DNA of 45,662 nt from Anaerolineales bacterium. GTDB lineage: Bacteria > Chloroflexota > Anaerolineae > Anaerolineales > DRMV01. The translations under genes were made by a program, and so were the position numbers. Below, in pieces: positions 2,816-45,662 of this stretch (position 1 is the first letter of the stretch; the number at the start of each line of letters is the position of its first letter). The stretch lies in NCBI GenBank assembly GCA_027053355.1, contig JALUDX010000084.1, positions 1-45,662 of the forward strand. The letters are read 5' to 3'. Below the pieces are notes generated by a model that worked only from the letters and a program-made list of their open reading frames with translations, was not told the origin of the DNA and ran no database searches.

Positions 2816-3057
2816 GAGGAAATGTAACTGTTCAGCCTTGGCAAGAAGAAGAAACCACAGATTACGCAGATTACGCAGATTACGCAGAAAGACATCCACA
2901 GATTTCACAGATGAGCATAGATTGAGCGAAAAACACAAAAAACGCAACGCTTTCCTTCGTTTCTTGGCGACCTTGGCGACCTTGGCGACCTAAAAATCCG
3001 TGGCTATCCGTGTTATCCGTGGTCTATCTCCTTGTGGCTAAATCGTTACGAGGAAAT
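2816..3057. mobile_element. MITE-like element, family I copy a, with perfect 8-bp target duplication
   Basis: A 226-bp non-coding element (2824-3049) has terminal inverted repeats GTAACTGTTCAGCC (2824-2837) and GGCTAAATCGTTAC at the right end. It is flanked by identical 8-bp direct repeats GAGGAAAT (2816-2823 and 3050-3057). Inside are short tandem units: ATTACGCAG three times and CTTGGCGAC three times. There is no transposase. GTAA termini and 8-bp duplications fit the IS66 family, so this is probably a non-autonomous derivative. It fills most of the gap between the sensor kinase and its response regulator. The rest of the gap (2781-2815 and 3058-3120) shows only the Shine-Dalgarno site GGAGG before 3121. 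Confidence 0.85.
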
Positions 3058-3120: not shown

Positions 3121-3819
3121 ATGCACGCAAACCAAAACACCACCGTGTTGGTAGTCGACGATGCCAAAAGTTTGCGCGAGTTCGTGCGCCGAAATTTGGA
3201 CGTGCGCGGTTATCAGGTGGTGACCGCGACCAACGGTGCGGACGCGCTGGCTAAATTCCGCACCCATGATGTGGATCTGGTCATTCTAGATTTGATCATG
3301 CCGCAAATCGGCGGCCTGGAAGTCATCAAACAATTGCGGCAGGTTTCCAATGTTCCCATCATTGTGCTTTCGGCCTTAGGCGAAGAAAGCACCAAGATTC
3401 AGGCGCTCAATTACGGCGCGGACGATTATCTGACTAAGCCTTTCGGTGTTGGGGAGTTGCTGGCCCGTGTTCAGGCCGTGTTGCGCCGCGCCCAACCTCC
3501 CATAGAGCAGCATGAGCCCAGTGTGTTGGTGCGCGGCCCCATTGTGTTGGATCGCGAACGCCACGAGGTGACCATCGACGGCCAGCCTGTGGATTTAACC
3601 CCTACGGAATTCAACCTGCTGGAATTTCTCATGCGTCACGCGGGCAAGGTGCTTTCCCACCAGACCATTTTGCAGCATGTTTGGGGTACGGGTTATGGGC
3701 AGGAAACGGAATACCTGCGGGTGTACATCGGTCGCCTCCGCCAGAAGATTGAGCCCAACCCCAATCAGCCCCGCTTTTTGCGCACCGAGCGCGGGGTGGG
3801 CTATTTTTTTGATGCGTGA
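3121..3819 (+). CDS. OmpR/PhoB-family response regulator
   Basis: A DNA-binding response regulator of 232 residues, probably the partner of the kinase at 48. The receiver domain (about 8-120) has the acidic pair D13-D14, phospho-acceptor Asp57 in LDLIMP, and Lys106 in TKPF. The C-terminal winged helix (about 135-230) carries the typical LTPTEFNLLEFLM and RVYIGRLRQKIEP segments. The ATG at 3121 is chosen because it has GGAGG 7 bp upstream and begins just before the receiver fold; an in-frame start at 3010 would add 37 residues read from the mobile repeat. Target genes are unknown. Confidence 0.93.
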   Translation: MHANQNTTVLVVDDAKSLREFVRRNLDVRGYQVVTATNGADALAKFRTHDVDLVILDLIMPQIGGLEVIKQLRQVSNVPIIVLSALGEESTKIQALNYGADDYLTKPFGVGELLARVQAVLRRAQPPIEQHEPSVLVRGPIVLDRERHEVTIDGQPVDLTPTEFNLLEFLMRHAGKVLSHQTILQHVWGTGYGQETEYLRVYIGRLRQKIEPNPNQPRFLRTERGVGYFFDA

Positions 3820-6077: not shown

Positions 6078-6399
6078 GATCGGCCTAACTGTTCAGTCTT
6101 GGGAAAACAGCCCACGGATGAGCGCGGATGATGGCGGATAGATGCGGATTTTGGGGTACCGCGGGCACAAGGAGAGGCACCTGAGTAGCCAAGCGCCATT
6201 TGCCCCCATCCTTTAGTGCTCCAACCCTGCCGCCTTCTGTGTTCTCGGTGCCTTCTCTGTGTCTTCTGTGGTTTTTTGCCTGCGTCATCCGTAGCGTTTC
6301 TTTGGGGCTGAACATTTGCGGCCTTGGCGCTTTTTTCGTTCGCCTGATCGTGTCGGGGGAAATGCATCTGCCTGCGCCCCGTCGATTTTGCGCGTGGCC
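6078..6399. repeat. Repeat-rich intergenic DNA with degenerate family I ends
   Basis: No gene is supported. CTAACTGTTCAGTC (6085-6098) matches the left end of family I, and GGCTGAACATTTGC (6306-6319) resembles a right end. Between them lie the genome's dispersed low-complexity words (ACGGATGAGCGCGGATG type and a C/T-rich TTCTGTGTTCTCGGTGCC type). No flanking 8-bp duplication was recognised, so this copy is old or composite. Confidence 0.5.
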
Positions 6400-6857
6400 G
6401 TAACCGTTCGGCCTTGGGGGCCCGGCCGCGGATGACGCGGATGGCAACGGATTCCCGCGGATTTTCGAGACGCCGCTCATCTGTGAGTGTTTTTCTGCGG
6501 AATCGTAATTACCTACCCTGCACCGAAAACGAGGCTGACAATCAAAGTTTCAGTAACTTTGCCATGCCATGAAGCAACATTACGCCTTGCTCGCCCTCAC
6601 CTTACCCCCGCTGCGCGCCCCCTCTCCTCTCCCATTGGGAGAGGAGAGGGGGCTGAGCCGCCACCCTTCGTCTTCGCTCAGGGCAGCGGCTCTGGGGGAG
6701 TGGTGAGGGCGAAAAGCCACTGCTTTGGCCGTGAGAAACACCCAGGGATGATTCACTCAGTCAACTCAGTCAACTTGCTCCTTGTTGCGTAGCAGGTAGG
6801 TAGTTACGCGGAATCTGCGTAATCTGTGGTTTCTCCTCGCCGAGGCGGAACAGTTAC
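6400..6857. repeat. Family I element interrupted by a family II element
   Basis: GTAACCGTTCGGCC (6400-6413) and GGCGGAACAGTTAC (6844-6857) are inverted family I ends. The right part keeps the typical words TGCGTAATCTGTGG. A family II element has landed inside at 6505-6807. Outer flanks do not form a clear 8-bp duplication. The rest of the gap to the mraZ promoter (6858-6957) shows nothing recognisable. Confidence 0.65.
6497..6815. mobile_element. MITE-like element, family II copy a, with perfect 8-bp target duplication
   Basis: The element spans 6505-6807. Its ends are inverted: GTAATTACCTACCCTGC at the left and GCAGGTAGGTAGTTAC at the right. It is flanked by identical direct repeats GCGGAATC (6497-6504 and 6808-6815); removing one copy restores a normal family I sequence. 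Inside is a near-perfect palindrome (arms CCCCCTCTCCTCTCCCA, one-base centre) and one CTTCGTCTTCGCTCAGGGC unit, bounded by TCGCCCTCACC and GGTGAGGGCGA. No transposase is encoded. Confidence 0.85.
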
Positions 6858-32614: not shown

Positions 32615-32990
32615 GTTTATTCGTAATTACCTGCGTGGTGGCAAAACGCCTCTGTGGCGTAACTGCCTGCCCTGCGCCAAAAACGAGGTTGACAAGCAAT
32701 ATTCCAATAACTCTGCCATGCCATGAAACAACATTACACCTTGCTCGCCCTCACCATTCCCCCCATGCCCTTCGTCTTCGCTCAGGGCAGCCTTCGTCTT
32801 CGCTCAGGGCAGCCTTCGTCTTCGCTCAGGGCAGCCTTCGTCTTCGCTCAGGGCAGCCTTCGTCTTCGCTCAGGGCGGAGGCTCAGCCCCCTCTCCTCTC
32901 CCATTGGGAGAGGAGAGGGGGCGCGCAGCGGGGGTAAGGTGAGGGCGAAAAGCCACTGCAGCGCTTCTGGGTAGGTAATTACGTTTATTC
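32615..32990. mobile_element. MITE-like element, family II copy b, with perfect 8-bp target duplication
   Basis: The element spans 32623-32982 (360 bp). Its ends are GTAATTACCTGC and GGGTAGGTAATTAC (inverted). Identical direct repeats GTTTATTC flank it (32615-32622 and 32983-32990). Joining the flanks rebuilds a family I right-end sequence (GGTCTATTTCCC ... CCTTGTGGCT). It shares its outer segments with copy a at 6505, but the palindromic core is reversed and the CTTCG units lie on the other side. Confidence 0.85.
32769..32878 (+). repeat. Tandem repeat, five 22-bp units
   Basis: CCTTCGTCTTCGCTCAGGGC plus AG is repeated five times; the last unit ends GG instead of AG. It sits inside family II copy b, while copy a holds a single unit. 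The difference suggests expansion by slippage or recombination after insertion. Confidence 0.9.
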
Positions 32991-33039: not shown

Positions 33040-33250
33040 AGATAAACGTAACTATTCAGCCACAAGGAGATAGCGAGATAGCCCACGGATAACACGGATA
33101 GCCACGGATGCGCACAGATTTTAAAGTGCCGCCAAGTGCCAAGAAACGTTTGTGTTTTTCGCTCAATTTGTAAAATCTGTGGATGTCTTTCTGCGTAATC
33201 TGCGTAATCTGTGGTTTCTTCTTGCCAAGGCTGAACAGTTACAGACAAAC
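33040..33250. mobile_element. MITE-like element, family I copy b (reverse orientation)
   Basis: The element spans 33048-33242 (195 bp). Ends are GTAACTATTCAGCC and GGCTGAACAGTTAC, perfect inverted repeats except for one base. Flanking direct repeats AGATAAAC (33040-33047) and AGACAAAC (33243-33250) agree at seven of eight bases. Compared with copies a and c it lies in the opposite orientation and has two GCGTAATCT units. The rest of the gap to 33375 shows only the ribosome binding site. Confidence 0.85.
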
Positions 33251-35538: not shown

Positions 35539-35690
35539 CCCCCCGGCGCGCTCACTGCTCAGCCTCTGCAGAAGGGAACCGTAGATTACGCAGACCAAAA
35601 CGCAGGGCAGGGCCGCCGTCCGTCCCTATGTAACGCCCTTAGCACCCAAAAAATCCGCGGGTATCCGTTGCCATCCGCGTCGTCCGCGGC
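35539..35690. repeat. Truncated family I-like repeat
   Basis: Words typical of family I are present (GTAGATTACGCAGA; AATCCGCGGGTATCCG; GCGGCCTATTCCCTT), but the right terminus is lost. The repeat runs into the 3' end of the hydrolase gene and supplies its stop codon. No flanking duplication was found. Confidence 0.55.
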
Positions 35691-36371
35691 CTATTCCCTT
35701 AGGTCGCCCGCCGCGTAAAATTGCTCCAAGGCCTTGCGGCAGCGCGCGCCCACTTTGTGGGCGGCCTGATCTTCGCAATAGGTGACTTGCGCGCCCGCGG
35801 CTTCTAACAACGCGCTGGCCTGCCGCGCGTAGCGTACAGGGACGATAGGGTCGGCCTGCCCGTGGGCGATGAACGCCCTCTTGCCGCGCAACGGCTGGCC
35901 TGCTACCTGCTGCGCTGTCCCCGTGGGGAGGAAGCCGGCCAGCAAAGCCACCGTAGCCACGCTTTGGGGGTATTGCAGAGCGTACACCCCCGCAGCCGAA
36001 GCGCCCTGACTGAAGCCCATCCAATGCTGCTGGTGCCAACCCGCGTGGGGAAAGCGCGCGGCCAGTGCCCGCAGCGCTCCTTGCAAGGCCAGCAGCGCAG
36101 GCCGGTAGGCCGACCAGGCAGGCAAGCGGTCCGTGGGGGTGCGGGGCAGCCAACTGTAGCCTCCGCGCGGGCTGGCGGCGGGGTAAAGTGCGCGTAACAA
36201 CACCACCCACGCCTGGGGCGGTACGACGGGCACGAACGAGCCCATGAAAAACTCGTCGCCCGTCCAGCCGTGAAGCAGCACCCAGACGCCCGCGGGGTGA
36301 TCTTCGGCGCCTACGCGCACCCGCGCCTGCAGCGCGTCGGCTCGGAGGGTGAGCCAGCGGTCAGGAGCCAT
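35691..36371 (-). CDS. Alpha/beta hydrolase (carboxylesterase/phospholipase type)
   Basis: A 226-residue serine hydrolase. The oxyanion segment LLHGWTGDE is followed by the nucleophile elbow GFSQGA (Ser121), Asp174 in HGQADPIVP, and His205 in AAHKVG, forming a full catalytic triad. Similar proteins act on carboxylesters or lysophospholipids. Its first bases overlap the patatin gene by 11 bp, so it is the third gene of the tetR operon. The last codons (Arg-Glu-stop) come from a repeat remnant, so the original C terminus may have been slightly different. Confidence 0.88.
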   Translation of the reverse strand: MAPDRWLTLRADALQARVRVGAEDHPAGVWVLLHGWTGDEFFMGSFVPVVPPQAWVVLLRALYPAASPRGGYSWLPRTPTDRLPAWSAYRPALLALQGALRALAARFPHAGWHQQHWMGFSQGASAAGVYALQYPQSVATVALLAGFLPTGTAQQVAGQPLRGKRAFIAHGQADPIVPVRYARQASALLEAAGAQVTYCEDQAAHKVGARCRKALEQFYAAGDLRE

Positions 36372-38511: not shown

Positions 38512-39546
38512 GTGGAAACCCTGGCAGACCGCGTTTTGGCCGGGCAGCGCTACGCCTTGGCCCGCACCCTGACCTTGATCGAGAACGACGCGCCCGAAGG
38601 GCTGGCTACCTTAGCCTCGCTGTTTCCCCATACCGGGCGGGCGCACCTGATCGGCGTGACCGGCGCACCGGGCACGGGCAAGTCTTCGCTGGTCAATCGC
38701 CTGGCTCATTACTATCGTCACCCGCCCGAAGGCCAGCCGCGGCGGGTGGCCATCGTCGCGGTCGACCCTTCCAGCCCTTTTACCGGCGGTGCGATTTTAG
38801 GCGACCGCATTCGGATGCGTGATTTGAGCGGCGACCCGGGCGTGTTCATCCGCTCCATGGCCTCGCGCGGCGCGTTAGGCGGCCTGGCCCGCACCACTGC
38901 CAATGTGGTGCAGGCGCTGGACGCAGCCGGGTTCGACATCATCTTCATCGAGACCGTGGGCGCAGGCCAGGCCGAGGTGGACATCGCCCGCCTGGCGCAC
39001 ACCACCTTGGTGGTCGAAGCGCCCGGCCTGGGCGACGACGTGCAGGCCATCAAGGCCGGCATTTTAGAAATCGCCGACATTTTGGTCGTCAACAAGGCCG
39101 ACCGACCCGGTGCGGATGCCACCGTGCGCGCGCTCACCGAAATGCTCAAAATGGCGCATCCTACCCAAGAGACTATTATGCACCATGGCCGCCGCATGGT
39201 GATCAACGCGGGGCAGAAAACGCAGAAGAAAGAGGAACACCCGTCGTGGGTTCCCCCGGTGCTCAAAACCGTAGCCGTAGACAACCGCGGCATCCACGAA
39301 TTGGCGCAGGCCATCGCCCGGCACCGCGCCTACCTGGAAGAAACCGGTGAATGGCACGTGCGCGACCGGGTGCGCCTGCAAAGCGAACTGGAAAACATGT
39401 TAGGCGAAGCCCTGATGCAACACTGGCGAGCCCACACTGCAGCCGAACACTACCAAAGCGTGTTGGAAGAGGTCTTCTCCCGACGCCTTGCCCCCACCGA
39501 GGCCGTCGACCGCTTGCTGGCGCAGAGTCTTCCGCCTGCGGCTTGA
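38512..39546 (+). CDS. meaB: MeaB/ArgK-type G3E GTPase, mutase chaperone
   Basis: A GTPase of 344 residues that guards and reloads B12-dependent acyl-CoA mutases. It has the P-loop GAPGTGKSS (51-59), VDPSSPFTGGAILGDRIRM, the Walker B-like IFIETVGAGQAE and the guanine motif NKAD near 194. The start is GTG at 38512 with GGGAGG upstream. It is adjacent to the B12-binding subunit, and together they point to methylmalonyl-CoA/succinyl-CoA or a related isomerisation. Confidence 0.94.
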   Translation: METLADRVLAGQRYALARTLTLIENDAPEGLATLASLFPHTGRAHLIGVTGAPGTGKSSLVNRLAHYYRHPPEGQPRRVAIVAVDPSSPFTGGAILGDRIRMRDLSGDPGVFIRSMASRGALGGLARTTANVVQALDAAGFDIIFIETVGAGQAEVDIARLAHTTLVVEAPGLGDDVQAIKAGILEIADILVVNKADRPGADATVRALTEMLKMAHPTQETIMHHGRRMVINAGQKTQKKEEHPSWVPPVLKTVAVDNRGIHELAQAIARHRAYLEETGEWHVRDRVRLQSELENMLGEALMQHWRAHTAAEHYQSVLEEVFSRRLAPTEAVDRLLAQSLPPAA

Positions 39547-39587
39547 CCGTTTCCACCTGCATTATCAGGTTCTCACGAGGGTCTTTT

Positions 39588-40547
39588 ATGTACGGTTCAA
39601 TTAAACTCTTTACGGGCACTTCTTTCCCTGCTTTGGCTCAACACATTGCCGACTACTTAGGGCTGGCGTTAGAAGGCGTAGACATCATTGAGTTCCCCAA
39701 CGAAAACCTTTTCGTCAAACTGCATCGCAGCGTGCGGGGGCAAGACGTGTTCATCATCCAGACCACGGCCAGCCCGGTGCACCGCAATTTGATGGAATTG
39801 TTGATCATGATTCAGACCGCGCGACTGGATTCTGCGGGGCGGATTACCGCGGTGGTGCCGTATTTGTGTTACGCCCGCTCCGACAAAAAAGACCAGCCGC
39901 GCGTGCCCATCACGGCTCGCCTGATTACCGACATGATCGAAGTCGCTGGCGCCGACCGCTACATCACCTTCGACCTGCACGCGGGGCAAATTCAGGGCTT
40001 TTTCTCCATCCCCGGCGACGTGCTCACGGCTTTCCACCTGTTGGTGGAATACATGCAGCAGAAAAAGCCCGAACTGCACGACCCGGTGGTGGTGACCGCC
40101 GACCTGGGGTTTGCCAAGAAGGGACGTAATTACGCCGAAGCCCTGCACGTGCCCATGGCGTTCATCGAAAAGCGCCGACTGGGGAACCAGGCGCGCGCCG
40201 AAGCCCTGACGATTATCGGCGACGTGGCCGACCGGGACGTCATCATCGTGGACGACGAGGTAGACACCGGCGGCTCCATGGCGCAGGCCGTACAGATCGT
40301 GCGGCGTCACGGCGCGCGGCAGGTGTATCTGGTGTTCGTCCATCCGGTGCTTTCGTCCCCCGCGGCAGAGCGGCTGGCCGCGCTGGATGTGCAAGAAATC
40401 ATCACCACCGATACCATTCCCATCCCGCCGCAGAAGCGGGCGCTGCTGGGCGATCGGTTGCGGGTGGTGTCGATTGCGCCGTTGCTGGGGGAAGTGATTC
40501 GCCGGGCGCACGAGGGCATCAGCGTGGGCGCGCTGTTCAACGAATGA
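39588..40547 (+). CDS. prs: Ribose-phosphate pyrophosphokinase
   Basis: Makes phosphoribosyl pyrophosphate from ribose-5-phosphate and ATP for nucleotide synthesis. The 319-residue protein shows the N-terminal half with FPNENLFVKLHRSVRGQDVF, the flag/loop segment PYLCYARSDKKD, catalytic His131 in DLHAGQIQGFF, and the PRPP-binding motif VIIVDDEVDTGGS (about 218-230). The ATG at 39588 follows GAGGG; the longer frame to 39351 overlaps meaB. It lies 41 bp after meaB, so it may be co-transcribed. Confidence 0.95.
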   Translation: MYGSIKLFTGTSFPALAQHIADYLGLALEGVDIIEFPNENLFVKLHRSVRGQDVFIIQTTASPVHRNLMELLIMIQTARLDSAGRITAVVPYLCYARSDKKDQPRVPITARLITDMIEVAGADRYITFDLHAGQIQGFFSIPGDVLTAFHLLVEYMQQKKPELHDPVVVTADLGFAKKGRNYAEALHVPMAFIEKRRLGNQARAEALTIIGDVADRDVIIVDDEVDTGGSMAQAVQIVRRHGARQVYLVFVHPVLSSPAAERLAALDVQEIITTDTIPIPPQKRALLGDRLRVVSIAPLLGEVIRRAHEGISVGALFNE

Positions 40548-40579
40548 GGCCATGCCGCGGGATGTGAGAAGCGGGCAGG

Positions 40580-40761
40580 AGAAACCACAGATTACGCAGA
40601 AAAACATCCACAGATTTCACAGATTAGCACAGATTGAGCGAAAAACACTAAAAGCCCACTCTCGTCCTCGCTTCTTGGCGGTCTTGGCGTCATCTTGGCG
40701 ACCTTGGCGACCTAAAAATCCGTGCTATCCGCGGTCTATTTCCTTGTGGCTGAGTAGTTAC
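40580..40761. mobile_element. Family I copy d, left end missing
   Basis: This copy has the family words (ACCACAGATTACGCAG; ACATCCACAGATTTCACAG; GACCTAAAAATCCGTG) and the right terminus GGCTGAGTAGTTAC (40748-40761). The left terminal repeat is absent. It carries only one ATTACGCAG unit, against three in copy a and two in copies b and c. GAGAAATC follows the right end but has no clear partner. Confidence 0.7.
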
Positions 40762-40980
40762 GAGAAATCTCAATGTCGCAGACGGAAAAACACAGAAGAC
40801 ACAGAGAAGGCACAGAAAACGCAGAAGATGGGAGGGGTTGAGGCACTGAGGGATTGGGGTAAAAGGCGCTTGGTTACTCGGGTGCCTCTCCCGGCGCCTC
40901 GGCACCTACAAATTCGCGTTTACCCGCCATCATCCGCGTTCATTCGCGGTCGATTTTCTCAAGGCTGAAAAGTACACGCC
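40762..40980. repeat. Dispersed repeat block upstream of fpg
   Basis: No gene is supported. AAACACAGAAGACACAGAGA-type words lead to TCATCCGCGTTCATTCGCGG and then CAAGGCTGAAAAGTAC, similar to a diverged family I right end. The fpg start codon follows this repeat by about 8 bp with no clear Shine-Dalgarno site. Confidence 0.5.
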
Positions 40981-41829
40981 ATGCCCGAACTGCCAGAAGT
41001 AGAGACCATTGCCCGTGCTCTGCGCGCAGGTGGGCGCGGCCACCAGGGGGTGGTCGGCGCGCGTGTGGCGCGGGTGGAGGTGCTGTGGCCCAAGAGCATT
41101 GCCGAGCCCGACGCGGCGGCTTTTGCTCAGGGGTTGCGCGGCGCGGTGTTGGCCCACGTGGGGCGGCGGGGCAAGTTTTTGGTGTTGGCATGGCGCGCCG
41201 CGGGCTTTTTGCTGGTGCATTTGCGCATGAGCGGCGATCTGGTGGTGTTGGAGCCGGGCGAGCCGCTCCCCCGGCACACCCGCTGGGCGCTCTATTTCGA
41301 CGATGGGCGGGTTTTGGCTTTCGACAATCCGCGCAAGTTTGGCCGCGCCTGGTGGGTCGACGACCCGCAGCGGGTGCTCGGCCGGTTGGGGCCTGAGCCC
41401 CTCGACCCGGTCTTGACCCCCGATATCTTTTATCATCGGCTGCAAAAGCACCGTCGGGGCATCAAGCCCTTGCTCATGGAGCAGACGTTCTTGGCCGGTT
41501 TGGGCAACATTTATACCGATGAAGCCTTGCATCGAGCGCGCATCCACCCGCAGACCCCCGCGCACTGCCTGAACCCAAGCCAGGCCGAGCGCCTGCTCAC
41601 CGCCATCCGAGCCGTGCTACACGCCGGCATCGCGGCCAACGGCGCGAGCATCGATTGGATGTATCGCGGCGGCGCATTCCAGAACACTTTTCGGGTGTAT
41701 CATCGTCAGGGGGAACCTTGCCCGGTCTGCGGCACGCCCATCGCTCGGATACGCGTGGGCGGTCGCAGCACCCATTATTGCCCCCAGTGCCAGCCCTGGC
41801 TGCGTTGTGATGGGGAGATTGGGGATTAA
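40981..41829 (+). CDS. fpg: Formamidopyrimidine-DNA glycosylase
   Basis: Base-excision repair enzyme that removes 8-oxoguanine and cuts the abasic site. The 282-residue protein begins with the invariant MPELPEVETI (catalytic Pro2 and Glu3), has Lys65 in GKFL, MSGDL, FDNPRKFG and GNIYTDEALHRARIHP, and ends in a zinc finger (Cys247, Cys250, Cys267, Cys270). The invariant N terminus fixes the start. It is flanked on both sides by mobile repeats; its stop codon overlaps the target duplication of the next one. Confidence 0.96.
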   Translation: MPELPEVETIARALRAGGRGHQGVVGARVARVEVLWPKSIAEPDAAAFAQGLRGAVLAHVGRRGKFLVLAWRAAGFLLVHLRMSGDLVVLEPGEPLPRHTRWALYFDDGRVLAFDNPRKFGRAWWVDDPQRVLGRLGPEPLDPVLTPDIFYHRLQKHRRGIKPLLMEQTFLAGLGNIYTDEALHRARIHPQTPAHCLNPSQAERLLTAIRAVLHAGIAANGASIDWMYRGGAFQNTFRVYHRQGEPCPVCGTPIARIRVGGRSTHYCPQCQPWLRCDGEIGD

Positions 41830-42049
41830 GGAAACGTAACTATTCAGCCTTGGCAAGAAGAAACCACAGATTACGCAGATTACGCAGAAAGAGATCCACA
41901 GATTTCACAGATTAGCACAGATTGGGCGAAAAATACTAAAAAGCCCACTTTCGCCCTCACTTCTTGGCGGTCTTGGCGTCATCTTGGCGACCTAAAAATC
42001 AGTGCTCTCCGTGGTCTATTCCCTTGTGGTTGAATAATTACAGGGAAAC
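41828..42049. mobile_element. MITE-like element, family I copy c
   Basis: The element spans 41836-42041 (206 bp), with ends GTAACTATTCAGCC and GGTTGAATAATTAC. Flanking direct repeats AAGGAAAC (41828-41835) and AGGGAAAC (42042-42049) match at seven of eight bases. It fills the whole gap between the convergent fpg and yggU stop codons. It is in the same orientation as copy a, with two ATTACGCAG units. Confidence 0.85.
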
Positions 42050-44337: not shown

Positions 44338-44382
44338 GGGTGGAGAAAGGGTGTGTCTGCTGCCGCGGGTTAGCGGCAAGGA

Positions 44383-44553
44383 GCCCCGCCGTGCCGTGTG
44401 CTGCCCAGTTTTGCTCCTGCAAACGCAGGTGGGAGTCGTCCCGGACGGTTTCGCCTTGGCTCAGGCCTATCGCGTCCCCGCCCGCTGGTTGACTCCCTCA
44501 CAAAAGGTGTTGGGGCAAAACCGGTCACTGCGGCATCACGAACACGGCAGGGT
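44383..44553 (-). ncRNA. ssrS: Probable 6S RNA
   Basis: Minus-strand RNA of about 170 bases that would bind RNA polymerase by mimicking an open promoter. A 5' sequence CCCTGCCGTGTTCGTGATGC resembles the 6S closing stem. Helices in order are: GCCGTGT (44548-44542) with ACACGGC (44399-44393); ten pairs between 44524-44515 and 44414-44405 (one G-U); GGGAGTC (44497-44491) with GACTCCC (44437-44431). Between the last two lies a large central bubble whose 3' strand has a small hairpin, CCTGC-GTTT-GCAGG. This layout matches 6S RNA. A minus-strand TATAAG (44565-44560) lies just upstream and a terminator downstream. The identity is inferred by eye. Confidence 0.7.
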
Positions 44554-44559
44554 GTTTTT

Positions 44560-45259: not shown

Positions 45260-45662
45260 CAAAGATGAAAACCACGGATTGCACGGATTAGCGCAGAGGG
45301 TAACGCCAAGGACGCCGAGGGTAACGCAGAGACGCAGAGAGAGTAACGCAGAGGCGCAGAGGAAACGGAGGCGCAGAGAGCGCAAAGGGTTAACGCCAAG
45401 GTCGCCAAGGTCGCAAAGGACGCCAAGGGTAACGCAGAGACGCAGAGGAGGCAAAGAGCGCAAAGAGAAAATTTTTTCTGATTACCCGACACAAAATCAA
45501 TCGTGCCCTGGCCGTTGTCTCATTGGCCGGCAGAACTCATCTCGTCATGCCAAATCTTTACAAAAATCTTGCTTTTCACACCCTCTCCTCTCCCCCCAAG
45601 CCGCCCCCTTCGACTTCGCTCAGGGCAGCCTTCGTCTTTGCTCAGGGCGGCGGCTTTCCCCC
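45260..45662. repeat. Dispersed low-complexity repeats at the window end
   Basis: 45265-45470 is made of short near-tandem words ACGCAGAGACGCAGAG and ACGCCAAGGTCGCCAAGG. Translations in all frames are Leu/Arg/Cys-rich and shift frame between units, so no gene is called. After a plain stretch, 45577-45662 holds CCCTCTCCTCTCCCC and two CTTCG-x-CTTCGCTCAGGGC units, a third partial copy of the family II core, cut by the window edge. Confidence 0.7.

What the first reader, a model, noticed from the sequence alone, without database searches (positions are those of the whole stretch)
2816..3057. Family I elements are mobile: inverted ends plus 8-bp duplications at several sites
Copies at 2824-3049 (GAGGAAAT/GAGGAAAT, 8/8), 33048-33242 (AGATAAAC/AGACAAAC, 7/8) and 41836-42041 (AAGGAAAC/AGGGAAAC, 7/8) share ends GTAACT-x-TTCAGCC. 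The target sites are alike (A/G-rich, GAAA or TAAA near the end). Such ACAGATTACGCAG-type intergenic DNA is seen widely in bacterial genomes and usually dismissed as low complexity; here its ends and duplications can be read directly.
Basis: partly seen in the sequence, partly recalled or inferred. Interest (0 to 1): 0.7.

Follow-up and report, generated by a model that had tools for sequence, protein, structure and literature searches.

The report
Miniature transposons with IS66-type ends
Short, gene-less DNA elements have hopped into many places in this bacterial genome, using the same end sequences and leaving the same 8-base scars as the known IS66 (ISBst12-type) jumping genes, although no IS66 gene was found in this genome.

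Summary
All three copies lie where stated, with the stated 8-bp flanking repeats. Genome-wide, GTAACTNTTCAGCC occurs 153 times (reversed control 0). Of 64 convergent end pairs, 28 have an 8/8 and 13 a 7/8 flanking repeat (chance 0.04 and 0.15). The duplication is exactly 8 bp and abuts the GTAAC/GTTAC terminus. Congeners show empty sites: the kinase-regulator spacer holding copy 2824-3049 is far shorter and element-free in five species. A 421-bp composite insertion flanked by GCCATGCC/GCCATGCC sits between two genes adjacent in four species, one of which keeps the unduplicated site.

The elements are non-autonomous MITEs. Ends and duplication length match the IS66 family, single-ORF ISBst12 type. 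Intact ~1.55-kb IS66 elements of the same order carry 11-13 of these 14 end bases plus 8-bp duplications; two degraded IS66 copies carry all 14. This genome has no detectable IS66 transposase.

Two reader claims fail. The target shows no real motif, only AT-rich neighbours. The ACAGATTACGCAG DNA is not defined by these ends: in a sister genus and in other phyla it stands alone. What spreads that phrase remains unexplained.

Verdict: real, well-supported MITE family; new member of a known kind.

The parts
2816..2823 (.). left 8-bp target duplication GAGGAAAT
2824..3049 (+). Family I MITE, 226 bp, between histidine kinase (48-2780) and response regulator (3121-3819) genes
   Evidence: absent from the same spacer in 5 congeners
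3050..3057 (.). right 8-bp target duplication GAGGAAAT
33040..33047 (.). left duplication AGATAAAC
33048..33242 (-). Family I MITE, 195 bp, reverse orientation, upstream of a LytR_cpsA_psr gene
33243..33250 (.). right duplication AGACAAAC (7/8)
41828..41835 (.). left duplication AAGGAAAC, overlapping the stop codon of the mutM-like gene (ORF ends 41829)
41836..42041 (+). Family I MITE, 206 bp
42042..42049 (.). right duplication AGGGAAAC (7/8)
40549..40556 (.). left duplication GCCATGCC of the composite insertion
40557..40977 (+). 421-bp composite of two fused, decayed family I-type elements, inserted between the phosphoribosyl pyrophosphokinase-like gene (39351-40547) and the mutM-like gene (40981-41829)
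   Evidence: genes directly adjacent in 4 congeners
40978..40985 (.). right duplication GCCATGCC, contains the mutM-like gene's start codon
6400..6857 (-). older family I element carrying a nested family II element; 147 bp once the insert and one duplication are removed
6505..6807 (+). nested family II MITE, 303 bp, ends GTAATTACCTACCC / GTAACTACCTACC, duplication GCGGAATC 8/8 at 6497-6504 and 6808-6815
6085..6319 (+). decayed family I-type copy, no duplication readable
32659..32982 (+). second family II copy, no duplication readable
35551..35706 (+). decayed relative (left end CTCACTGCTCAGCC; right boundary approximate)

Best explanation
Family I is a large group of non-autonomous miniature transposons (MITEs) moved in trans by an IS66-family transposase of the single-ORF ISBst12 type. 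Shown: 14-bp inverted ends GTAACTRTTCAGCC, insertion at a fixed base with an exactly 8-bp target duplication, many copies with unlike bodies, empty sites in congeners, nested insertions. Inferred: the transposase recognises the 14-bp ends, cuts the target with an 8-bp stagger in AT-bordered DNA and gap repair makes the duplication; the body is passenger DNA. The autonomous partner is now missing from this genome, so the family is probably stranded or mostly inactive.
For: 153 exact ends against 0 control. Exact 8-bp duplication, 41 of 64 pairs at 7/8 or better. Empty sites: the kinase-regulator spacer, 341 bp here, holds no element and at most about 90 bp between the aligned proteins in 5 congeners; the neighbouring gene pair is directly adjacent in 4 congeners, with the sequence GGCCATGCCCGAACTG in G003 against GGCCATGCC..insert..GCCATGCCCGAACTG here. 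A nested family II insertion whose removal restores a sequence present in sister copies. A nested family I insertion in L011 whose removal leaves a 184-bp element. IS66 link: intact single-ORF IS66 elements in the same order with ends of the type GTAACTRYTCAGSC and 8-bp duplications (L159 CATTATTT 8/8; L158, ends GTAACAACTCAG, GATTTTTA 8/8; L160 7/8; L161 has a perfect 14-bp inverted repeat GTAACTACTCAGCC, 13/14 to family I, duplication not readable); Pfam DDE_Tnp_IS66 and zf-IS66. Exact GTAACTATTCAGCC beside IS66 C-termini in L095 and L097; in L097 the transposase stop codon falls inside the end. The active ISBst12-group element ISDge4 has ends GTGACTACTCAGCA / GTAACTGCTCAGCA and an 8-bp repeat (PMC12898284). 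Family II ends match a second IS66 type (L087, L088).
Against: No IS66 transposase was detected in this genome or in the two congeners rich in copies, so the partner is inferred from relatives; metagenome assemblies can lose multi-copy IS. No intact IS66 with exactly GTAACTRTTCAGCC at both ends was found; intact ones differ at 1-3 of 14 positions. Only the 14-bp ends are shared with IS66, the body is not. Copies of the main subfamily are only about 88% alike at the median, so current movement is not shown.
Confidence: 0.88

Rival explanations
1. The elements are MITEs with these ends and 8-bp duplications, but were moved by a transposase of another family (several families also make 8-bp duplications) that happens to have similar ends.
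For: No IS66 transposase in the host genome; intact IS66 ends in relatives match only 11-13 of 14 positions.
Against: Two separate MITE families in the window (GTAACTRTTCAGCC and GTAACTACCTACCC) each find their end on an IS66 transposase of the same order. GTAA termini and 8-bp repeats are described for IS66 (PMC11946415; PMC12898284).
Confidence: 0.08
2. The repeats are low-complexity, tandem-repeat or hairpin DNA that grew in place by slippage, and the flanking duplications are coincidental.
For: Bodies are phrase-like, with 9-bp tandem units; the phrase exists without these ends elsewhere.
Against: 28 of 64 perfect 8-bp repeats against 0.04 expected, at one length only; empty sites; unlike bodies behind the same ends.
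Confidence: 0.01
3. About the cargo, and compatible with the best explanation: the phrase DNA inside the elements is an older hairpin repeat that IS66-type ends captured more than once, rather than part of the MITE's own ancestry.
For: G020, another family of the order, has a 123-bp MITE with ends GTAACTGCTCAGCC..GCCTGAGCAGTTAC and perfect duplications GCTTGTTG and CATGAAAC, holding the G020-style hairpin (TTATCCACAG..CTGCGGAT), while G000 elements hold the G000-style AAACCACAG form; both styles also stand alone. Stand-alone phrase in other phyla.
Against: Common descent with loss of ends in some copies was not excluded by a tree; the stand-alone phrase shows no obvious duplication or fixed boundary by eye, and this was not tested statistically.
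Confidence: 0.45

Closest known systems
IS66 family, ISBst12 group (e.g. ISDge4 of Deinococcus geothermalis, PMC12898284)
   Same: GTAACTRYTCAGC-type 14-bp ends (ISDge4 GTAACTGCTCAGCA is 12/14 to family I), 8-bp target duplication
   Different: Family I has no transposase gene, is about 150-300 bp rather than about 1.5 kb, and its body shows no resemblance to IS66
Bacterial MITEs such as MITEPsy1 (PMC3189936) and MITECca01 (PMC9769881)
   Same: Short, gene-less, inverted ends shared with an IS, target duplication of fixed length (4 bp for MITEPsy1); MITECca01 is also mostly intergenic or inside other mobile elements
   Different: Those resemble other IS (ISPsy2, IS982-family ISCca4) present in the same genome; here the partner family is IS66 and is missing from the genome. 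The held library gave no IS66-partnered MITE in the searches made
REP / REPIN palindromes (PMC3116915, PMC3733652; seen as search hits only, not read)
   Same: The stand-alone ACAGATTACGCAG hairpins are short intergenic palindromes in many copies
   Different: Family I has 14-bp ends and 8-bp duplications; a REP-type transposase link was not tested for the stand-alone hairpins

Membership tests
MITE (miniature inverted-repeat transposable element) | Terminal inverted repeats at a fixed base | tested here: met
   GTAACTNTTCAGCC ends, sharp boundary of the duplication profile
MITE (miniature inverted-repeat transposable element) | Fixed-length target-site duplication | tested here: met
   exactly 8 bp, 28/64 perfect
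MITE (miniature inverted-repeat transposable element) | Short and without a transposase gene | tested here: met
   147-296 bp in the 41-copy set, which was limited to 300 bp by the pairing rule; bodies of phrase-like repeats
MITE (miniature inverted-repeat transposable element) | Ends shared with an autonomous element | tested here: met
   IS66 elements of the same order; not found in the same genome
MITE (miniature inverted-repeat transposable element) | Empty sites in relatives | tested here: met
   two orthologous sites and nested insertions
MITE (miniature inverted-repeat transposable element) | Observed transposition | not testable with these tools
   needs an experiment
IS66 family (proposed partner, not the element itself) | Ends starting GTAA and 8-bp direct repeats | tested here: met
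   literature
IS66 family (proposed partner, not the element itself) | Encodes a DDE_Tnp_IS66 transposase | tested here: not met
   the genome, the elements included, has no PF03050 match; hence the elements are IS66-dependent by inference, not IS66 members
ISBst12 group (of the IS elements compared) | Single transposase ORF without accessory TnpA/TnpB | tested here: met
   L158, L159, L161: one ORF of 490-520 aa fills the element

The most novel reading that the evidence does not exclude
ACAGATTACGCAG-type phrase DNA is a cross-phylum, modular repeat that spreads by an undescribed route and has been captured as cargo by IS66-type ends independently in separate lineages; the MITEs then re-disperse it, so their bodies are species-specific mosaics of the local phrase set.
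Probability: 0.3. Interest if true: 0.7.

Novelty: new member of a known kind. Interest (0 to 1): 0.5.

Why it matters
It turns what looks like low-complexity intergenic DNA into a readable record of insertions: ends, scars and empty sites can be read base by base, and the partner transposase family is named. It is a well-documented case of MITEs using IS66/ISBst12-type ends (none was found in the held papers) and separates a largely solved question (how these bounded copies moved) from an open one (why the same phrase stands alone in unrelated phyla).

Tried and rejected
GAAA/TAAA or purine target consensus: weak at best, replaced by AT-rich immediate flanks. IS66 transposase in the own genome: none. 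Long-range pairs of ends as a hidden autonomous element in G000 (C73, C104, C117) and G002 (C14, C46, C81, C121): these places resolved into short elements, some nested or side by side; the largest pair with a duplication was 653 bp, and no transposase was looked for there by ORF or family scan. Whole-element DNA hairpin as a conserved structure: folding no better than shuffles (z +1.74 and -1.24). Rfam: no match at the elements. Empty-site test at 41836 and 33048: gene order not shared with congeners in the loci fetched, so uninformative. Literature search by phrase sequence: no relevant paper.

Full report
Observation. In the whole genome (2.45 Mb, 215 contigs) the end GTAACTNTTCAGCC occurs 153 times without mismatch, against 0 for the same pattern read backwards. 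I read the surroundings of the first ~100 of these. Pairing each left end with the nearest convergent right end within 300 bp gave 64 testable pairs: 28 have identical 8-bp flanks and 13 differ at one base, where shuffled pairing expects 0.04 and 0.15. Position by position, identity is 0.73-0.81 at exactly the 8 bases abutting the ends and falls to 0.16-0.43 outside; no other length from 5 to 11 gives a single perfect repeat.

Target. Over 41 copies with a repeat of at least 7/8 the duplicated bases show no consensus and average 47% A+T. [GT]AAA is present in 6 of 41 against 2.5 expected (P 0.03), purine or pyrimidine tracts in 9 against 3.3. The strong feature lies just outside: the two bases on each side of the duplicated 8 bp are A/T in 122 of 164 cases against 46% in the neighbouring flanks (P 2e-13).

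Empty sites. In five congeners with orthologous proteins (74-79% identity for the kinase, 78-83% for the regulator) the aligned ends of the same histidine kinase and response regulator are 15-92 bp apart with no element, whereas here 343 bp lie between them, holding copy 2824-3049. The exact target bases cannot be aligned there because the spacer has diverged. The second site can be read to the base. In four congeners the phosphoribosyl-pyrophosphokinase-like gene and the mutM-like gene are directly adjacent; one of them reads GAATAGGCCATGCCCGAACTG. In the window the same junction reads GAATGAGGCCATGCC, 421 bp of insertion, GCCATGCCCGAACTG, i.e. an exact 8-bp duplication GCCATGCC that includes the mutM-like start codon. 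The insertion is a fusion of two decayed elements of the same type. Nested insertions give further empty sites: family II element 6505-6807 with duplication GCGGAATC sits in a family I element, and taking it out restores the sequence CCACAGATTACGCAGATTCCGCAGAAAAA that sister copy L002 has unbroken; the nested copy in L011 behaves alike.

What moved them. GTAA termini and 8-bp repeats are described for the IS66 family (PMC11946415). The genome itself has no PF03050 match. In relatives of the same order, intact single-ORF IS66 elements of about 1.55 kb have ends such as GTAACTACTCAGCC (L161, perfect 14-bp inverted repeat, 13/14 to family I, its own duplication not readable); others with 11-12 matching bases have 8-bp duplications GATTTTTA (L158), CATTATTT (L159) and a 7/8 repeat (L160). 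Their proteins match DDE_Tnp_IS66 and zf-IS66. Two degraded IS66 copies (L095, L097) carry the exact sequence GTAACTATTCAGCC next to the transposase C-terminus, and in L097 the reading frame stops inside that end. The experimentally active ISBst12-group element ISDge4 has ends GTGACTACTCAGCA and GTAACTGCTCAGCA and an 8-bp repeat (PMC12898284). The second MITE family in the window, with GTAACTACCTACCC-type ends, likewise finds its end on IS66 transposases L087 and L088. The simplest account is that an ISBst12-type IS66 transposase recognised the 14-bp ends and inserted the elements; recognition and cutting are inferred, not shown. The absence of a transposase, and a median identity of about 88% between copies of the main subfamily, suggest that movement is past or rare.

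Bodies. Elements with these ends have several unlike bodies in G000 and other bodies again in congeners G002 and G003, all built of short phrases such as CCACAGATTACGCAG, CACAGAAGACACAGA, CTTGGCGACCTTGGCG and ATCCGCGTTCATCCGTGG. The ACAGATTACGCAG phrase is not tied to these ends: 44 of 52 examined G000 sites have such an end (at most 4 mismatches) within 40 bp upstream (a sample partly chosen by ends), but only 2 of 31 in G009 and 0 of 16 in contigs of Aminicenantes, NC10/Methylomirabilota, Eisenbacteria, Ignavibacteria, Holophagaceae and Bacteroidaceae. Its stand-alone form is often a hairpin AAACCACAGATTACGCAGATT..AATCTGCGGTTT; one copy is kept upstream of the same gene in G000 and G004 (L145, L207). 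In G020 a 123-bp MITE with ISBst12-type ends and perfect duplications (GCTTGTTG, CATGAAAC) encloses the phrase in the form that stands alone in that same genome, which favours repeated capture.

Verdict. A real, well-bounded MITE family with an identified partner family: ordinary in mechanism, well documented here, and new as far as the held literature shows. The unexplained part is the phrase cargo.

Noticed in passing
window 44379-44556 (-): 6S RNA (RF00013, 73.2 bits).
   Followed up: no
window 6505-6807 and 32659-32982: A second IS66-type MITE family (GTAACTACCTACCC-type ends) with CTTCGTCTTCGCTCAGGGCAG-type repeats inside; ends of this family also appear inside family I copies L129, L130 and L136.
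   Followed up: partly
window 32769-32890 and 45607-45662: Tandem CCTTCGTCTTCGCTCAGGGCAG 22-bp units, the first array lying inside a family II element.
   Followed up: no
G009 loci L227-L252: Intergenic chains of phrase modules (CCACAGATTACGCAG, AACGCAGAGGCGCAGAG, AACGCCAAGGACGCCAAGG, AATCGGTGTAAATCTGTGTCAATCGGTGG) mostly without transposon ends.
   Followed up: partly
L111, L113, L118, L119, L121, L125, L126 (one Aminicenantes MAG): A short hairpin repeat with the same ACAGATTACGCAG phrase, in several copies extended by ATGAAAAA..TTTTTCAT flanks, in an unrelated phylum.
   Followed up: partly
L028 and L043: Two places share an element copy (99%), its duplication and about 110 + 80 bp of flanking phrase DNA but differ beyond: a larger composite unit seems to have been duplicated.
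   Followed up: partly
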